From Paenibacillus algicola (GTDB lineage: Bacteria > Bacillota > Bacilli > Paenibacillales > Paenibacillaceae), in the NCBI RefSeq assembly GCF_005577435.1, contig NZ_CP040396.1:1918501-1982500 (forward strand): a DNA stretch of 64,000 nucleotides, given 5' to 3'. The notes under the pieces were generated by a model. The model made no database searches and was not told the origin of the DNA. It was given only the letters and a program-made list of their open reading frames with translations. Below, piece after piece: positions 2,609-61,955 of this stretch (positions are counted from its first letter, which is position 1; each line of letters opens with the position of its first letter). The position numbers and the translations under genes were made by a program.

Positions 2609-3100
2609 ATGTTCAAGTTAAGCGAGATTAAGGAATTGATCGAGCTTGTGGATCAAACTTCTATTCAAGAGCTCGAAATCGAAAATGAAGGCACCCGCCT
2701 GTCCATCAAGAAGCCGGGGAATCCTGAAGTCGTCAGCTACCAGGCTGCACCTCAGGCTTATGCAGTACCGCAGCCTTTCCAACCACCTTCGCAGGCTCCA
2801 AGCCAGGCTCCTGCGACAGCTCCTGCTGAGCCGTCTGCAGCCGCAGATGCAGCTAGCTCCCTACATAAGATTGTGTCACCTATGGTTGGAACGTTCTACA
2901 GCTCCCCGTCTCCGGAAGCGCCGCCGTTTGTCAGCACTGGCGATAAGGTGGGCGTTAAATCCACCGTATGTATTATTGAAGCGATGAAGCTGATGAATGA
3001 GCTGGAAGCTGAGATCAAGGGTGAAGTCGTTGAAGTCCTCGTTCAGAACGGTCAGCTGGTCGAGTTTGGTCAGCCGTTGTTCCTGGTGAAGCCGGATTAA
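2609..3100 (+). CDS. accB: Acetyl-CoA carboxylase biotin carboxyl carrier protein
   Basis: This carries the biotin that shuttles carboxyl groups from biotin carboxylase to carboxyltransferase in malonyl-CoA synthesis, the first step of fatty-acid synthesis. The 163-residue protein has a short N-terminal domain (MFKLSEIKELIELVD), a Pro/Ala/Gln-rich flexible linker at about 44-85, and a biotinyl domain with EAMKLMNE; the biotinylated lysine is about residue 127. AAGGAG at 2591-2596 would also allow a TTG start at 2603, 6 bases downstream. I prefer ATG 2609 because the product then begins as in relatives. accC follows after 60 bases. Confidence 0.94.
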   Translation: MFKLSEIKELIELVDQTSIQELEIENEGTRLSIKKPGNPEVVSYQAAPQAYAVPQPFQPPSQAPSQAPATAPAEPSAAADAASSLHKIVSPMVGTFYSSPSPEAPPFVSTGDKVGVKSTVCIIEAMKLMNELEAEIKGEVVEVLVQNGQLVEFGQPLFLVKPD

Positions 3101-3160
3101 TCGCCTCCATCCGAATCACACCATTTCACGACAACGACAAGTTCGAAGGAGGTAAACTGC

Positions 3161-24922: not shown

Positions 24923-26047
24923 GTGGTAAACCGGGAACGAATCCTGAATGAATTTATGGAGCTTGTCTCCATTGATAGTGAAACCGGGCACGAGGAACAG
25001 ATCAGTGAAGTACTGAAAGAAAAATTCGGCGCGCTGGGCCTTCAAGTGCAGGAGGATGATTCCAAAGAGCGAACAGGTCATGGCTCGGGCAACCTCATTG
25101 TAACCTGGGAGGCGGAGCAGGCTGAGCATGCTCCCAAGCTCTTATTCACCTGTCATATGGACACCGTAACACCAGGGAAAGGGGTGAAGCCGGAGCTTGG
25201 GGAAGACGGATATATCCGCAGTGACGGAACTACGATCCTGGGTGCGGATGATAAAGCAGGGCTTGCCGCATTGCTGGAAAGCATCCGGGTGGTTCAGGAG
25301 AACAACCTGCCTCATGGTCAGATTCAGTTCGTCATAACAGCCGGAGAAGAGTCTGGACTTGTCGGCTCTCGGGCATTGCAGCCGGATCTGCTTGACGCTG
25401 ATTTTGGCTTCGCCCTTGACTCGAACGGAGAGGTTGGCTCTGTTGCCGTATCGGCGCCTACCCAGGCGCGCATTCAGATGGTCATTCATGGTAGGTCAGC
25501 ACATGCCGGAGTCAACCCCGAGGACGGCATCAGCGCCATTCAGGTCGCCGCAAAGTCGATTGCCGCGATGAAGCTGGGCCGGATCGATAAAGAGACGACA
25601 GCCAACATTGGCAAGTTTCAAGGCGGTGGACCAACAAACATCGTGTGTGACTACGTACAGATTGATGCAGAGGCACGCAGTATCGTCCAGGAGAAGGTAG
25701 AGCAGCAAATCTCGAATATGCGGGAAGCGCTGGAAACGACGGTACGCGAGTATGGAGCCAAAAGTGAGTTTCGCAGCGAAATTATTTACCCGGCATACAG
25801 CTACAACGAGCATGACGAGGTTGTTCAGCTTGCGAAGCGAGCCATTGAGGCGGCCGGCCTGAAGCTTAGCCTGTTTACTTCGGGAGGCGGGAGTGATGCC
25901 AATGTATTTAACGGACTTGGCATTCCGACGGTGAATCTGGCAGTAGGCTATGAGAACATCCATACCACGAAAGAGCGCATCCATGCGGATAATCTTGTAA
26001 AGGCAGCCACAATTGTCCTTTCTCTTTTTCAAGAGACTCAGCATTAA
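24923..26047 (+). CDS. M20-family peptidase (YqjE/PepT-like)
   Basis: A zinc metallopeptidase of the M20/M25/M40 group, similar to the tripeptidase-like B. subtilis YqjE. The 374-residue protein shows the zinc-binding LLFTCHMDTVTPGKG (His-x-Asp), the bridging Asp in ILGADDKAGLAAL, the catalytic Glu pair ITAGEESGL, a dimerisation domain with HGRSAHAGVNPEDG, and NIHTTKERIHADNL near the end. The start is GTG 24923 behind AGGGAAG. It stands alone between the Prli42-like gene and repeat copy A. Substrate is not known. Confidence 0.88.
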   Translation: MVNRERILNEFMELVSIDSETGHEEQISEVLKEKFGALGLQVQEDDSKERTGHGSGNLIVTWEAEQAEHAPKLLFTCHMDTVTPGKGVKPELGEDGYIRSDGTTILGADDKAGLAALLESIRVVQENNLPHGQIQFVITAGEESGLVGSRALQPDLLDADFGFALDSNGEVGSVAVSAPTQARIQMVIHGRSAHAGVNPEDGISAIQVAAKSIAAMKLGRIDKETTANIGKFQGGGPTNIVCDYVQIDAEARSIVQEKVEQQISNMREALETTVREYGAKSEFRSEIIYPAYSYNEHDEVVQLAKRAIEAAGLKLSLFTSGGGSDANVFNGLGIPTVNLAVGYENIHTTKERIHADNLVKAATIVLSLFQETQH

Positions 26048-26066: not shown

Positions 26067-26290
26067 AAAAAAAAGGGGCTGTCCCACAGGATCTAGGGTC
26101 TTGCGGGATGGCCTCGTTTGTTGTTGCGAGATGCTCCGCGTACGTAACGTTCCTCCCCTTGCTGTTGCCCCCAAATTTCTTGGTGTGATGGCTTTCGCTT
26201 GCTCATAACCTGTTGAAGAAGACGGCAATAGACCCTAAAAAAGACATGGCGGTGCTGGGATCCCCTCCCTGACTCCACCATGTCTTTATG
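26067..26290 (-). repeat. Repeat element copy A (structured, terminator-like)
   Basis: Read on the minus strand, this copy has four parts. First, a hairpin with AAAGACATGG (26278-26287) pairing with CCATGTCTTT (26240-26249). Second, a conserved 19-nt block at 26216-26234. Third, a variable middle. Fourth, a 47-nt block at 26090-26136 that matches 50126-50172 with one mismatch, running into an imperfect stem and A/T-run at 26067-26074. It begins about 93 bases downstream of the minus-strand gene ending at 26383 and has the same orientation. A 71-codon frame crosses it, but the second copy carries a stop in that frame. It fills most of the 335-base gap here. Confidence 0.8.
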
Positions 26291-26346
26291 TTTTGCTTCA
26301 GATCTCACTCAAGAGAGCTGCCTCTTTAAACAAGAATGTACTTTGA

Positions 26347-26377
26347 TATGCTCCCCCTTGTTATTGTATGGAGCATA
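26347..26377 (-). terminator. Hairpin after the TPR-type gene
   Basis: TATGCTCC (26347-26354) and GGAGCATA (26370-26377) form an 8-bp stem with a 15-base loop, five bases beyond the stop of the minus-strand gene. No T-run follows, so it could protect the transcript end rather than terminate it. Repeat copy A follows. Confidence 0.4.
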
Positions 26378-26382
26378 CTTCA

Positions 26383-27594
26383 CTAGTTTAAGCATGCCGC
26401 CTGGCGGGGGGCTGCTTCTCTTCTAAGCTGGCCCGGTGTCCAGGAGGTATGCCAGCCGCTGCTTTCGAGCACATGCAGCGCACTGTGGATGCATTCCATA
26501 TAACGAACCACCTGTTCTTGAGCCGCGGGTGACGCACACAGCTTCTCAATCCGGGCGGATAACGAGCTTAGTGAAGCCTGAAGGCAGCATGCTGCTTCAC
26601 CGTATTTGGCAAGCATGAGGTGAGGGCTTTGCAAGCGGAGCAGCTTAAACGCACTTGCGCCTTCTGCATATAGATGCTGATCGTACAGCAGCTCGGCGCG
26701 AATCATCTGGATTCTTGCAGCCTCACAATGAGTCAGCTCGGAGCTGCTAAGATGGATATGCTGCAGCCGCTCCAGTGCACTCTTGAAGTACCCTTCCTCA
26801 TAAAGATGTTGTATCAGCCGCAGCTCCCCGCTTCTTCCTTCACGTTGTAATAGCTGCTCGGCCTCAGCAAGCATGCCTAGCGATATAGCCGTGTTAGCCA
26901 TTTGCTGGCGAAAGCTAGGGGCGCTGTCTCCAGCCGGTTCCGGAACAATCCCGTGTAATCTCCACTGGCAGAGCAGCAAGGCATGATTGGCGAAGCTGGA
27001 CTCCTCGGATGTGAGCAGGCTTGGGCTTGCATCCTGACCTTGAAGCCATTGCAGAATCAATGACACGGCATCCTCCAGACGCCGGCACAGAATCAGGCAC
27101 TGAATATGCTTGATTCTGTCTCCGCCTGTCAGAGCAGGCACCGAGTCATAGCAGCGGGCAGCTTCGGCATAAGCACCGATATACATTAAGGCTTCCCCTG
27201 CGGCCTGCGGGGGGACAAGCTGAAGGACATCCTCAGACCTAAAACGCTCGTAAATTTCTGAATCTGACCATTTATTCTTATGAAGCAGCGCGGCCCACTC
27301 CTGTAACGCCGGCAGAATATCGCCGCCTCCCAGCAGCAAGGCTTGTCTGAAGGCTTGATCGGCTTCGGCAGCACGATTTAATTTGGCTTGAATTCTTCCG
27401 TAGTGCATCCATAGCTCCGATGGAGTGGCCTGGCCGGCCGGGTGATGTCCTTGAACCGGTAAATCCAGGGCGGCTGCCTTAAAGCAGGACAGCGCTTTAT
27501 GAAGCCTTCCGCGTCTCTCGTACCACTGACCGAGTGCAAAAGGCTGTGACGGTGCTGGTTCATGTTCGTAATTCCAATCCATAAGTTCTCTCAT
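26383..27594 (-). CDS. TPR-like repeat protein of unknown function
   Basis: A 403-residue soluble, mostly helical protein. Several stretches fit tetratricopeptide-like repeats: PFALGQWYERRGRLHKALSC, MHYGRIQAKLNRAAEADQAF, EALMYIGAYAEAARCYDS, and further helices to the end. No catalytic motif, signal peptide or membrane span is visible. I chose the start at 27594 because GGGAGGTTG lies just upstream; 15 residues could be added from 27639. TPR proteins usually act as scaffolds. It is on the minus strand, like the 50-residue gene upstream, among mostly plus-strand genes. Confidence 0.78.
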   Translation of the reverse strand: MRELMDWNYEHEPAPSQPFALGQWYERRGRLHKALSCFKAAALDLPVQGHHPAGQATPSELWMHYGRIQAKLNRAAEADQAFRQALLLGGGDILPALQEWAALLHKNKWSDSEIYERFRSEDVLQLVPPQAAGEALMYIGAYAEAARCYDSVPALTGGDRIKHIQCLILCRRLEDAVSLILQWLQGQDASPSLLTSEESSFANHALLLCQWRLHGIVPEPAGDSAPSFRQQMANTAISLGMLAEAEQLLQREGRSGELRLIQHLYEEGYFKSALERLQHIHLSSSELTHCEAARIQMIRAELLYDQHLYAEGASAFKLLRLQSPHLMLAKYGEAACCLQASLSSLSARIEKLCASPAAQEQVVRYMECIHSALHVLESSGWHTSWTPGQLRREAAPRQAACLN

Positions 27595-27702
27595 AGGCAA
27601 CCTCCCATGTATAGAACACTCGTAAAGGGAAAAAGTCATGGTGAAAGTACGAAAAAAATAGAAAAAAGTCGAAAAATAAGTATATAGTCCTAAGAATAGA
27701 GG

Positions 27703-42829: not shown

Positions 42830-42928
42830 GGGCTGATCCTTGCTAAGCGCTTTTCGCCTCATTGTTGCTTTATTAATTTTAAATATGGTAACATGACTTC
42901 ATAGGTTGCAAAGTATAGCTGAATATCA

Positions 42929-43093
42929 TATCCTTCGGGGCAGGGTGAAATTCCCTACCGGCGGTGATGGACGGAGAGTGCACGCTGTGCAGATGTCTCT
43001 TCGAACTCAGTCCGTGACCCGTCTCTACTTCGTAGAGCCGGTGGACCTGGTGCAAATCCGGGACCGACAGTATAGTCTGGATGGGAGAAGGAG
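42929..43093 (+). ncRNA. FMN riboswitch (RFN element)
   Basis: The conserved RFN core is visible: TCCTTCGGGGCAGGGTGAAA opening the aptamer, then TTCCCTACCGGCGGT, the internal AGCCGGTGGAC-like helix, and the closing CCGACAGTATAGTCTGGATG with GGAGAAGGAGA. FMN binding normally folds the downstream leader into a terminator and lowers riboflavin synthesis. A -35-like TTGCTT (42865) and TAACAT (42889) precede it. It controls ribD-ribE-ribBA-ribH. Confidence 0.95.
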
Positions 43094-43279
43094 AAGAGCG
43101 CATAGCACTTTATTTGTGCTGTGCCTCACTGAGAAATCATTGCTTTCCTGTGTGTCAAATTTCACAAAGATAACGATACAAGACTTGCCGGAGGGCATGA
43201 TTGCCTTTCTCTGCTTTTCTTTGCGTTGCTTTGAGCTGTTTATCACCGGAATGATTTTTGGTGTACTCCCATTAAACAT

Positions 43280-49277: not shown

Positions 49278-49406
49278 GGCCATGAAACATCGGCATCATC
49301 CTTGGGTCGGCAGGAATCGGCATTACATAGTCTGTTTGCATTAGGGGATGATAAACAGCAGGACCTACTTAAGGCTATATCAAAACAGCGTAAAGGAGTA
49401 ATGATC

Positions 49407-49874
49407 ATGTCCGATCACCCGATTCAAGGCTTGATGCAGACCGCGATGGAAAATATTAAAGCAATGGTCGATGTGAACACCATTGTCGGAGATCCAGTCA
49501 ATACACCGGACGGTACGGTAATTCTTCCGATCAGCAAGGTTGCCTTCGGTTTCGCTGCAGGCGGCAGTGATTATAATTCCAGTTCCGACGGTTCACCGAA
49601 CGGCGGGACACAGAACGGCGGAAAGGCGACACTGCCTTTTGGCGGCGGCAGCGGCGGCGGCGTATCGATCCGGCCGATTGCGTTTCTCGTAGTCGGCAAG
49701 GATGGCGTTCACATCGTTCCGCTGGACAACCAGACGCATCTGTTCGAGCGTATTATTGACTCGACGCCTTACCTGCTGGAGCAGATTCAGTCCATGTTCC
49801 AAAGCAGCAATCAGGGGAATGAAACCGCGAAGGATGCTTCTGGTTCCCAGAACGGTAACGGCCATTCCCATTAA
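49407..49874 (+). CDS. ytfJ: GerW-family sporulation protein YtfJ
   Basis: A forespore protein needed for lysozyme resistance or germination in B. subtilis (GerW). The 155-residue protein starts with HPIQGLMQTAMENIKAMVDV and has VDVNTIVGDPVNTPDGTVILP and a Gly-rich FGGGSGGGVSIRPIAFLVV. The C-terminus is Asn/Gly/Ser-rich. ATG 49407 lies eight bases after AAAGGAG; ATG 49401 is too close. A terminator and then repeat copy B follow. Confidence 0.92.
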   Translation: MSDHPIQGLMQTAMENIKAMVDVNTIVGDPVNTPDGTVILPISKVAFGFAAGGSDYNSSSDGSPNGGTQNGGKATLPFGGGSGGGVSIRPIAFLVVGKDGVHIVPLDNQTHLFERIIDSTPYLLEQIQSMFQSSNQGNETAKDASGSQNGNGHSH

Positions 49875-49885
49875 GCCGAGCCCAG

Positions 49886-49920
49886 CTACAGCGAAGGGGC
49901 TGTCCCCGAAGTAGTTTTTT
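49886..49920 (+). terminator. Terminator of ytfJ
   Basis: CTAC and GTAG enclose GGGG-CTGT-CCCC (about 49886-49914), followed by six T. Its AAGGGGCTGTCCC core resembles the terminal motif of repeat copy A read in reverse, so it may mark the left border of the repeat region. Confidence 0.7.
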
Positions 49921-49963
49921 GAATGACGAGACAGTTCTCTTTATGAAAAATTAGGCCAGTAAT

Positions 49964-50192
49964 GAAGAAATGGCGATGTTGGGGAGGTTATCCCTGCATC
50001 GCCATTTCTGACTTTTGGTCTATTACCGCCTTCTTGAGCAACAAGGGGATTGCATGGAATGTCGTCTTCTAAATCCATGTAGAGATAAAGCTGATCCATG
50101 CACGAATCAGCGGAGAGGACGAAACGAGCATCTCTCAACAACAAACGAGGCCATCCCGCAAGACCCTAGATCTTTTGGGATAGCCTCTTTTT
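49964..50192 (+). repeat. Repeat element copy B (structured, terminator-like)
   Basis: GAAATGGCGATG (49967-49978) and CATCGCCATTTC (49997-50008) form a perfect 12-bp stem whose loop shares GGGAGG and ATCCC with copy A. The conserved 19-nt block is at 50017-50035, and the 47-nt block at 50126-50172. The end is a terminator: GAGGCCATCCC (50147-50157) with GGGATAGCCTC (50177-50187) and six T. It starts about 90 bases after ytfJ in the same orientation. It occupies most of the 399-base gap before dacB, and the rest shows nothing I can support. Confidence 0.8.
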
Positions 50193-50273: not shown

Positions 50274-51497
50274 ATGAAAATAAAACGTAACTTGCAGCTT
50301 AGACTGGCTTCCACATGGCTTCTCGGAGTGCTGCTCCTGCTCGGACCTGCAGGCTTGCCTTTCCCGTTCAGTCTGGCTATGACTGTGCATGCCGAGCGTG
50401 TAGAGCAGCAACTCGCAATGCCATCTCCACCGGGTAATTACGCGGAATCGGCAGCACTGATTGACGTCAGCTCCGGCAGGCTGCTGTACAGTAAAGAAGG
50501 CAACAAAAGGATGCGTGTCGCCAGTCTGACCAAAATCATGACGGCAATCGTCGCGATTGAGCATGGAGATTTGAAATCCCAGGTGAAGGTGAGCAAGAAT
50601 GCTTTCGGCAAAGAAGGCTCCTCATTATTTCTAAAGCTTGGTGAGGAGATGCTGCTGGAGCATATGCTGTACGGGTTAATGCTGAGGTCAGGCAATGATG
50701 CAGCTACGGCTATCGCAGAGCATGTCGGCGGCTCAGAGGAGGGCTTTGTGCTGCTTATGAACGAGAAGGCGGCTGAGCTGGGGATGACGGGGTCCCATTT
50801 TATGAATCCGCACGGACTCGACCATGATGAGCACTATTCAACGGCTAACGATATGGCCAAGCTTACGGCTTACGCGCTGCACAATCCCGATTTCGCCGAG
50901 ATCGTCAAGACCGAGGTCAAGAAGGCGCCCAACCCGAATGAGAGCTGGGATTATAAGTGGAGCAACAAAAATAAAATGCTGCATCTGTATGAAGGTGCTG
51001 ACGGCGTCAAGACCGGCTATACGAAAAAAGCATTACGCTGCCTTGTCAGCTCGGCCACGAGAAACGGACAGCAGCTGGCCGTTGTCACCCTTAATGATGG
51101 GAACGACTGGAATGATCACGGCAAGCTGCTGGATTACGGCTTTGAGCATTTTCAGCTGCATCAGCTGATTCAGGAGGGCCAAGCGGTTCAAGGACAGCCG
51201 CTGAAAGCCGGGAACCGCTTTGCCTATGCACTGCTGCCGGCAGAGCAGGCGCTTGTCAAGAACAAGCTCGTCCTGCACAAAGCGGTGGAGCCGGATCTGT
51301 CGTTCGGGAGAAGAGGGTATATCGAGCTGTCGCTGCATGGTGAAGTGATCGGACGGGTGCCGGTGTACGAAGAAGGCAGCTTGATTCCAAAAGAGCAGCA
51401 GGATGAGGAGCATGCACGCGAAACCTGGCACCAAACAGAGAAGCAAGGCTTCTTAAGGTCTGCAGGGATTGTGCTCCGCAAGTTCTTGGGAGATTAA
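50274..51497 (+). CDS. dacB: D-alanyl-D-alanine carboxypeptidase DacB
   Basis: The spore-cortex carboxypeptidase (penicillin-binding protein 5* type), made in the mother cell in B. subtilis. The 407-residue protein has a signal peptide (about 1-40), the active site SLTK (Ser about 84), SGN in LRSGNDAAT, and KTG in VKTGYTKKAL. The C-terminal domain ends with an amphipathic helix. GCGGAGGATTCCC precedes the ATG. spmA and spmB follow, as in B. subtilis. Confidence 0.93.
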   Translation: MKIKRNLQLRLASTWLLGVLLLLGPAGLPFPFSLAMTVHAERVEQQLAMPSPPGNYAESAALIDVSSGRLLYSKEGNKRMRVASLTKIMTAIVAIEHGDLKSQVKVSKNAFGKEGSSLFLKLGEEMLLEHMLYGLMLRSGNDAATAIAEHVGGSEEGFVLLMNEKAAELGMTGSHFMNPHGLDHDEHYSTANDMAKLTAYALHNPDFAEIVKTEVKKAPNPNESWDYKWSNKNKMLHLYEGADGVKTGYTKKALRCLVSSATRNGQQLAVVTLNDGNDWNDHGKLLDYGFEHFQLHQLIQEGQAVQGQPLKAGNRFAYALLPAEQALVKNKLVLHKAVEPDLSFGRRGYIELSLHGEVIGRVPVYEEGSLIPKEQQDEEHARETWHQTEKQGFLRSAGIVLRKFLGD

Positions 51498-61694: not shown

Positions 61695-61955
61695 AAAAAA
61701 CCCCCAATCTCCATACTACTTCCGTAGTAAGGGACGAGAGTTATTTCGTGGTACCACCCTTATTCACTGCTATCAAGCAGCCTCAAGCGGCCGATCTGGG
61801 CCATGATTGGTAACGGATATCATCCGATTGCGCCTACTTCTCTTTCAGCGAAATATCTCAGGATCGCTCAAGGCACCTATACCCGCCGATTTACACCTGC
61901 CATCGGCTCTCTGAGGAGCATGTGAAGCACCTTGTTTCCATCATCGGTTTTCATC
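61695..61955 (-). ncRNA. T-box riboswitch, serine specifier, upstream of serA
   Basis: On the minus strand the leader has AGAGAGCCGATGG (distal Stem I), GCTGAAAG, and the T-box core AAGGGTGGTACCACG at about 61747-61761. In the specifier loop, AGC (61866-61868, minus strand) is followed by the purine G and then CTGAGA, so it reads as a Ser codon. Uncharged tRNA-Ser should promote read-through. The terminator arm contains TACTAC/GTAGTA and a G-run with six T near 61695. Confidence 0.9.

What the first reader, a model, noticed from the sequence alone, without database searches (positions are those of the whole stretch)
26067..26290. Undescribed structured repeat, copy A: minus strand, 3' of a TPR-like gene
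This segment recurs inverted at 49964-50192. The two share a 47-nt block with one mismatch (26090-26136 against 50126-50172), a 19-nt block with two (26216-26234 against 50017-50035) and a terminator-like end. The 5' hairpin stems differ in sequence, yet each pairs with its own partner: AAAGACATGG/CCATGTCTTT here, GAAATGGCGATG/CATCGCCATTTC there. The loops keep GGGAGG and ATCCC. Stem change with pairing kept suggests selection on RNA structure. A degenerate coding remnant is the main alternative, because some differences look synonymous in one frame. I know of no named element of this form.
Basis: seen in the sequence. Interest (0 to 1): 0.72.

Follow-up and report, generated by a model that had tools for sequence, protein, structure and literature searches.

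The report
Transposon relics replacing gene terminators
The repeated hairpin is the worn-down remains of a known bacterial jumping gene (IS1182 family) that sits where related bacteria keep the stop signal for transcription of the neighbouring gene, and its own paired hairpins look able to serve as the replacement stop signal.

Summary
Pairing is conserved while sequence changes, but this is no undescribed free-standing RNA. A and B are internally deleted relics of an IS1182-family insertion sequence, 2 of 31 copies counted in this genome, which holds no IS1182 transposase over the family cut-off. Full-length elements in relatives (1.9-2.0 kb, NF033551 at 447-449 bits) identify the pieces: the 'terminator-like end' is the left inverted repeat with an inner inverted copy; the '5' hairpin' is a palindrome over the transposase stop codon, read on the opposite strand. 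Both covary. Relics lie between convergent genes in 19 of 31 cases against 32 of 184 baseline gaps (p = 6e-8). At four sites, 38 of 40 relatives examined have an intrinsic-terminator candidate just after the gene, where this genome has the relic. This fits published IS1272/TnSha1 behaviour: insertion into terminator hairpins with loss of the hairpin. Most likely these elements exchange host terminators for their own, and decayed copies persist as terminators. Termination itself is inferred; no RNA data were available.

The parts
26075..26357 (+). Copy A: internally deleted IS1182-family relic, transposase sense = + strand (right boundary approximate)
26075..26115 (+). Copy A hairpin H-L: left inverted repeat GGGGCTGTCCC with inner inverted copy GGGATGGCCTC; terminator-like
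   Evidence: in alignment A2 this row was cut 4 bases short
26187..26239 (+).
   Evidence: C1:1944687-1944844 matches bases 28-183 of the L007 copy; compare with full-length relatives
26240..26287 (+). Copy A hairpin H-R: palindrome that in full-length elements straddles the transposase stop codon; terminator-like
26341..26357 (+). Copy A: degenerate right inverted repeat (tentative)
   Evidence: comparison by eye with other own copies
49896..50187 (-). Copy B: internally deleted IS1182-family relic, transposase sense = - strand
49896..49906 (-). Copy B: right inverted repeat tip
   Evidence: compare
49967..50008 (-). Copy B hairpin H-R
50039..50100 (-). Copy B: remnant of transposase N-terminal coding sequence
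   Evidence: C1:1968540-1968600, 90% identity to bases 255-315 of the L007 copy; frame
50147..50187 (-). Copy B hairpin H-L with left inverted repeat
24923..26047 (+). Peptidase_M20-family gene whose stop codon lies 27 nt before copy A; relatives have an intrinsic-terminator candidate there
26383..27639 (-). Gene with weak TPR matches, convergent on copy A
49302..49874 (+). Spore_YtfJ gene whose stop codon lies 21 nt before copy B; relatives have an intrinsic-terminator candidate there
50274..51497 (+). D-Ala-D-Ala carboxypeptidase (Peptidase_S11) gene downstream of copy B

Best explanation
Copies A and B are non-autonomous relics of an IS1182-family insertion sequence. The parent element inserts into intrinsic terminators, the host hairpin is lost, and no target duplication is made. 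It carries terminator-like hairpins near both ends: H-L, made from its own left inverted repeat, and H-R, over the transposase stop codon. In full-length elements a third hairpin, H-U, has a Shine-Dalgarno-like sequence in its 3' arm and an extended -10-like sequence in its 5' arm, so transcripts running in from outside would hide the ribosome site while the element's own transcripts would not. After the transposase decayed in this genome, hairpin-bearing ends stayed behind the genes whose terminators they replaced and probably terminate them. SHOWN by sequence: family, anatomy, covariation, position at gene 3' ends, terminator candidates in relatives at four sites. PUBLISHED for the family member IS1272: targeting and loss of stem-loops, several of them terminators. 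INFERRED: actual termination, the H-U mechanism, and retention by the host.
For: Family: transposases of two full-length relatives hit NF033551 (IS1182) at 449 and 447 bits (cut-off 270) and Pfam DUF772 and DDE_Tnp_1_6. Own genome: 23 matches to NF033551, none over the cut-off. Ends: 33 copies from 8 genomes, 1913-1982 bp, from GGGGCTGTCC-like to GGACAGCCCC-like ends; in one (L190) the computed left boundary fell inside the repeat. H-R: long hairpin in 24 of 25 non-redundant relatives; 91% of cells paired, 113 double-changed cells against a mean of 31 and a maximum of 46 in 500 partner shuffles. H-L: 95.9% paired, 13 double-changed cells against 6.5, 0 of 500 shuffles as high. H-U: 97.0% paired, 14 against 6.1, 0 of 500. 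Position: 19 convergent, 12 co-directional, 0 divergent of 31 relics; baseline 32, 115 and 37 of 184 gaps, p = 6e-8 for convergent. Orthologous sites: terminator candidate after the stop in 9 of 9 (A), 9 of 9 (B), 11 of 11 and 9 of 11 relatives examined. Of 46 gene 3' ends facing a relic within 130 nt, 43 have a candidate inside the relic and 36 only there; 58 of 62 relic strands have one against 25 of 186 shuffles. Literature: PMC4923244, PMC5678879 (passages), PMC9208149 (passage: ->IS<- arrangement over-represented for IS1182 among ten families).
Against: No transcript-end data. The scanners are my own; no control set of other genes was scanned, and most genes at operon ends would be expected to have a terminator anyway. 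The window tool's scan (loop limit 3-8) reports neither H-L nor H-R, only short stems. H-R shows no bias to the transposase strand. Relatives at the tested sites are 66-96% identical in protein, so the exchange is seen by orthology, not at a near-identical empty site; 2 of 11 at the fourth gene lack a candidate and one of the nine counted (L276) is weak. Full-length copies in relatives are less biased: 17 convergent, 16 co-directional, 6 divergent of 39. The stretch next to H-R towards the right end is kept in 18 of 31 relics, nearly as often as H-R (21) and slightly more often than H-L (17), so retention of hairpins as such is not proven. In PMC5678879 three of 13 common IS1272 copies had non-inverted-repeat targets and three were unresolved.
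Confidence: 0.75

Rival explanations
1. An independent structured non-coding RNA family, transcribed from the strand the reader gave, that merely spreads with or near an IS.
For: Strong covariation; no Rfam family reaches its gathering score at either copy; G-U versus A-C counts in H-R do not favour the transposase strand.
Against: The pieces coincide with the ends and coding sequence of a full-length IS. No sigma-70-like promoter in either region, a weak test (0 found, 0.6 and 0.4 expected). H-L favours the opposite strand. At 70% coverage 11 relics keep only H-R, 7 only H-L, 10 both, 3 neither.
Confidence: 0.04
2. Ordinary MITE family: deletion derivatives amplified by a now lost IS1182 transposase, with hairpins kept only because they were part of the parent; no host function.
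For: Two copies (L127 and the second copy in L133) share one internal deletion junction, so at least one derivative probably moved in trans. No transposase over the cut-off remains. The stretch beside H-R is kept almost as often as the hairpins.
Against: The segment patterns differ between most copies (junctions were not compared one by one). H-R and H-L are kept more often than the right tip (21 and 17 against 10 of 31), and 36 of 46 facing gene ends have their only terminator candidate in the relic within the stretch scanned. It overlaps with the best explanation; the difference is host use.
Confidence: 0.3
3. The palindromes act as DNA (cruciforms recognised during strand transfer), not as RNA.
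For: PMC5678879 proposes a cruciform-based model for IS1272. H-R has no bias to the transposase strand in G-U cells.
Against: H-L favours G-U over A-C on one strand (26 to 3), which DNA pairing would not. T-rich sequence follows the stems by inspection. H-R starts well inside the right tip.
Confidence: 0.15

Closest known systems
IS1272 / TnSha1 (IS1182 family, staphylococci; PMC4923244, PMC5678879)
   Same: Same transposase family; insertion at stem-loops, several confirmed as terminators, hairpin lost, no target duplication.
   Different: The passages I saw do not describe terminators carried by the IS itself, covarying end hairpins, or relics left as host terminators. The IS1272 sequence was not compared here.
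Bacterial MITEs with terminator-like sequence such as SPRITE (named in passages of the review PMC10969869)
   Same: Small dispersed intergenic repeats with terminator-like hairpins.
   Different: Here the parent IS, the site exchange and the covariation can be followed.
IS10-type protection from read-through by a hairpin that hides the ribosome site (recalled, not read here)
   Same: H-U in full-length elements has the same logic.
   Different: Sequence and IS family differ; not tested by experiment.
bcr1 repeats of Bacillus cereus (recalled)
   Same: Dispersed intergenic repeats of similar size with predicted RNA structure.
   Different: Not compared by sequence here.

Membership tests
IS1182 family insertion sequence (full-length parents) | Transposase over the NF033551 cut-off with DUF772 and DDE_Tnp_1_6 | tested here: met
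   449 and 447 bits against 270 for the two proteins tested; 44 of 100 genus genomes, own genome included with none, have a match to the L055 protein at E<=1e-50
IS1182 family insertion sequence (full-length parents) | Terminal inverted repeats and a length of about 1.6-2 kb (range recalled) | tested here: met
   1913-1982 bp with inverted-repeat ends in 33 copies of 8 genomes
IS1182 family insertion sequence (own copies) | Own intact transposase | tested here: not met
   0 of 23 matches over the cut-off in G000; the copies are relics, not autonomous ISs
IS1272-like terminator replacement | Insertion where a terminator hairpin stood, hairpin lost, no target duplication | tested here: inconclusive
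   Terminator candidates in 38 of 40 relatives examined at four sites; no near-identical empty site available; absence of duplication judged by eye
MITE | Short, non-autonomous, inverted-repeat-ended copies moved in trans | tested here: inconclusive
   Two copies share one deletion junction; segment patterns differ among most others
Known Rfam RNA family | Match at gathering score | tested here: not met
   Only an FMN riboswitch and a T-box in the window
Intrinsic terminator | Stable stem-loop followed by a T-rich tract, releases RNA polymerase | tested here: inconclusive
   Shape: 58 of 62 relic strands against 25 of 186 shuffles; the window tool's own scan does not report these hairpins; release not testable here

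The most novel reading that the evidence does not exclude
IS1182-family elements practise terminator exchange: they home to intrinsic terminators, the host hairpin is lost, and they bring in covarying two-way terminators that both restore host termination and shield the transposase gene from incoming transcription. When the element dies, its end hairpins are kept as the host's terminators, so a genome gradually rewires its transcription stops with transposon ends.
Probability: 0.5. Interest if true: 0.65.

Novelty: new variant of a known kind. Interest (0 to 1): 0.45.

Why it matters
It would explain how an insertion sequence that destroys terminators can be tolerated in many copies, and it gives a testable route by which mobile elements become host transcription terminators. 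It also warns that covarying hairpins in intergenic repeats can be transposon ends rather than new regulatory RNAs.

Tried and rejected
Rejected: a free-standing RNA gene (see rivals). RNAalifold predicted no structure on the H-R alignment A1; the loop position shifts between subfamilies and MAFFT misregisters the arms. I then aligned arms on each hairpin's own best axis, with partner shuffles and slid partners as controls; that choice favours pairing and the controls remove this only in part. The window tool's terminator scan did not report H-L or H-R. A near-identical empty site was not found: the best relatives are about 67-83% identical in DNA at the flanking genes. A genome-contig scan for a 23-base core gave one named genome, Paenibacillus lemnae. 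The crude axis count for H-U gave 52 G-U to 96 A-C cells with 225 other mismatches, so it was unsuited; on the pairs there are 40 U-G to 3 C-A cells.

Paper searches showed in their listings no paper on IS1182 relics as host terminators or on terminators carried by IS1182 ends. Listings were capped (20 of 493, 20 of 118, 20 of 1,811, 12 of 104), and only open-licence papers are held. PMC8450116 was seen in passages and not used.

Rows dropped: two short matches (20 and 28 bp; L138, L147) of 33 before counting 31 copies; L138 later showed an IRL-like hairpin and was used in alignment A2 only. A few further short weak hits were not fetched. L170, without a hairpin, was left out of H-R pair counts; L136, a truncated H-R, of the own H-R strand count; L216 of boundaries and context; the left gene of L130. 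Copy A's row in A2 was cut 4 bases short. Of 398 plasmid records matched, 40 were listed and 5 inspected.

Full report
OBSERVATION. Every stated match is in the sequence: the 47-nt block has 1 mismatch, the 19-nt block 2, and both hairpins lie at the stated places. Searching the window's own genome with copy A gives 59 matches at E<=10, 36 of them at E<1e-4. Merging hits in 31 fetched regions chosen gave 33 places; I dropped two of 20 and 28 bp, leaving 31 copies.

WHAT IT IS. One own copy (L007) holds both ends plus a short stretch of coding sequence. A search of 60 genomes with it, the own genome included, found matches in 32. Full-length elements in relatives encode a protein; the two proteins tested match IS1182 family transposase NF033551 at 449 and 447 bits (cut-off 270), plus DUF772 and DDE_Tnp_1_6. 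In this genome none of 23 matches to that family passes the cut-off, and a search with a full transposase finds three small pieces. A and B are therefore internally deleted relics. In 33 copies of 8 genomes with repeated ends the element is 1913-1982 bp and runs from GGGGCTGTCC-like to GGACAGCCCC-like ends; in one copy (L190) the computed left boundary fell inside the repeat, in another (L182) the right one fell short. Runs of A on the left and T on the right often adjoin and differ in length between copies; no target duplication is evident by eye.

ANATOMY. Read in the transposase direction (plus strand for A, minus for B), H-L is the left inverted repeat pairing with an inner inverted copy, followed by T-rich sequence. 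Full-length elements then have a leader with hairpin H-U, whose 3' arm holds AAAGGAG followed by a probable TTG start (frame LYIQYTMDQL) and whose 5' arm holds TGGTAAAAT in most. H-R is a long palindrome whose 5' arm codes for the last residues of the transposase; in 19 of 24 relatives the first in-frame stop lies at its axis.

COVARIATION. H-R: of 70 instances 25 are non-redundant; 24 fold into a long hairpin (z from -2.3 to -8.5, base-composition shuffles) and one does not (L170, z -0.7). On the 24, 91% of cells pair; 113 cells differ on both sides from the commonest pair, against a mean of 31 and a maximum of 46 in 500 partner shuffles; slid partners pair at 40-54%. H-L (18 non-redundant of 82 instances in relatives, plus 7 rows of this genome): 95.9% paired, 13 double-changed cells against 6.5, 0 of 500 shuffles as high, slid versions 47-61%; the number of pairs with a change on both sides is not exceptional (53 of 500 reach it). 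H-U (34 of 87 instances, 33 distinct in the count): 97.0% paired, 14 against 6.1, 0 of 500; further pair types are not exceptional (374 of 500). Relatedness is not removed by these shuffles. RNAalifold found no structure on the raw H-R alignment.

STRAND. For H-U the pairs give 40 U-G to 3 C-A, though a cruder count gave 52 to 96 with many loop cells. For H-R it is 28 to 45 in relatives and 32 to 43 in own copies, loops included, so the strand is open; T-rich tails on both sides would allow two-way use.

WHERE IT SITS. Of 31 relics 19 lie between convergent genes, 12 between co-directional genes, none between divergent genes. In twenty 20-kb samples of the same genome 32 of 184 gaps of at least 60 bp are convergent, 115 co-directional and 37 divergent (binomial p = 6e-8 for the convergent excess). 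Genes here are open reading frames picked by length, in the same way in both sets. For 39 full-length copies in relatives the counts are 17, 16 and 6, a weaker bias without a baseline of their own. PMC9208149 (passages seen) reports over-representation of the ->IS<- arrangement for ten families, IS1182 among them.

WHAT STOOD THERE BEFORE. At the copy A site 9 of 9 relatives examined have a terminator candidate starting 10-52 nt from the peptidase stop codon; at the copy B site 9 of 9 have one 12-31 nt from the YtfJ stop codon. In several of the latter the sequence beyond it (GGACATACC...CATATACTTGTACAA) continues in this genome just after the relic. At two more relics the counts are 11 of 11 (ilvD-like gene) and 9 of 11 (glucose-1-phosphate nucleotidyltransferase-like gene; both labels recalled), one of the nine being weak. 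The relatives examined were the 9-11 best loci of each search, out of 98 other genomes with a match. No control gene set was scanned. This fits the published behaviour of IS1272 and TnSha1: insertion into hairpins, several confirmed as terminators, with loss of the hairpin and no target duplication (PMC4923244, abstract and passages; PMC5678879, abstract, passages and one section, where three of 13 common copies had other targets and three were unresolved).

WHAT IT PROBABLY DOES NOW. Of 46 gene 3' ends that face a relic within 130 nt, 43 have a terminator candidate inside the relic in their reading direction, 7 of these also one outside, and 3 have none. A control on relic sequence gives 58 of 62 strands with a candidate against 25 of 186 shuffles. 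Retention at 70% coverage in 31 relics: H-R 21, the stretch between H-R and the right tip 18, H-L 17, right tip 10, leader hairpin 10, upstream leader 7, C-terminal coding 5, N-terminal coding 1. The hairpins exceed the right tip, but the stretch beside H-R is kept nearly as often, so selective retention is suggestive only. Host use as terminators is the best-supported reading; no transcript data exist here.

GENERALITY. A more distant IS1182 element in G014 (47% protein identity) also has a left-end hairpin and a long hairpin near the transposase 3' end. Of five named plasmid elements inspected, four (Cytobacillus, Kurthia, Paenibacillus cellulosilyticus, Ligilactobacillus salivarius) have a hairpin with T-rich tail at or just inside the left end and a leader hairpin; three have a clear hairpin after the transposase; the Lactiplantibacillus one gave no clear ends. 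Three of the five lie between convergent annotated genes.

NOVELTY. The element is a relic of a known family, and stem-loop targeting by that family is published. I did not see in the capped listings a description of terminators carried by IS1182 ends or of relics serving as host terminators. The genus assignment to Paenibacillus is an inference from the match in P. lemnae.

Noticed in passing
window 42927-43096 (+): FMN riboswitch at 106.3 bits.
   Followed up: no
window 61727-61953 (-): T-box leader at 96.8 bits.
   Followed up: no
L127 (about base 3095) and L133 reverse strand (about base 3092): Two own-genome copies share the same internal deletion junction between H-R and the leader, so one deletion derivative probably moved in trans.
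   Followed up: partly
relatives' full-length IS1182 elements, e.g. L032:1508-1582, L033:1508-1582: 5' leader hairpin with a Shine-Dalgarno-like sequence in the 3' arm and an extended -10-like sequence in the 5' arm, covarying; looks like protection from read-through.
   Followed up: partly
L138, around 3046-3110 (-): A further IS1182-type left end with a different inner hairpin, in the window's own genome.
   Followed up: no
L134 (2983-3074) and L142 (4427-4497): Two own-genome relics keep the leader hairpin but neither end hairpin.
   Followed up: no
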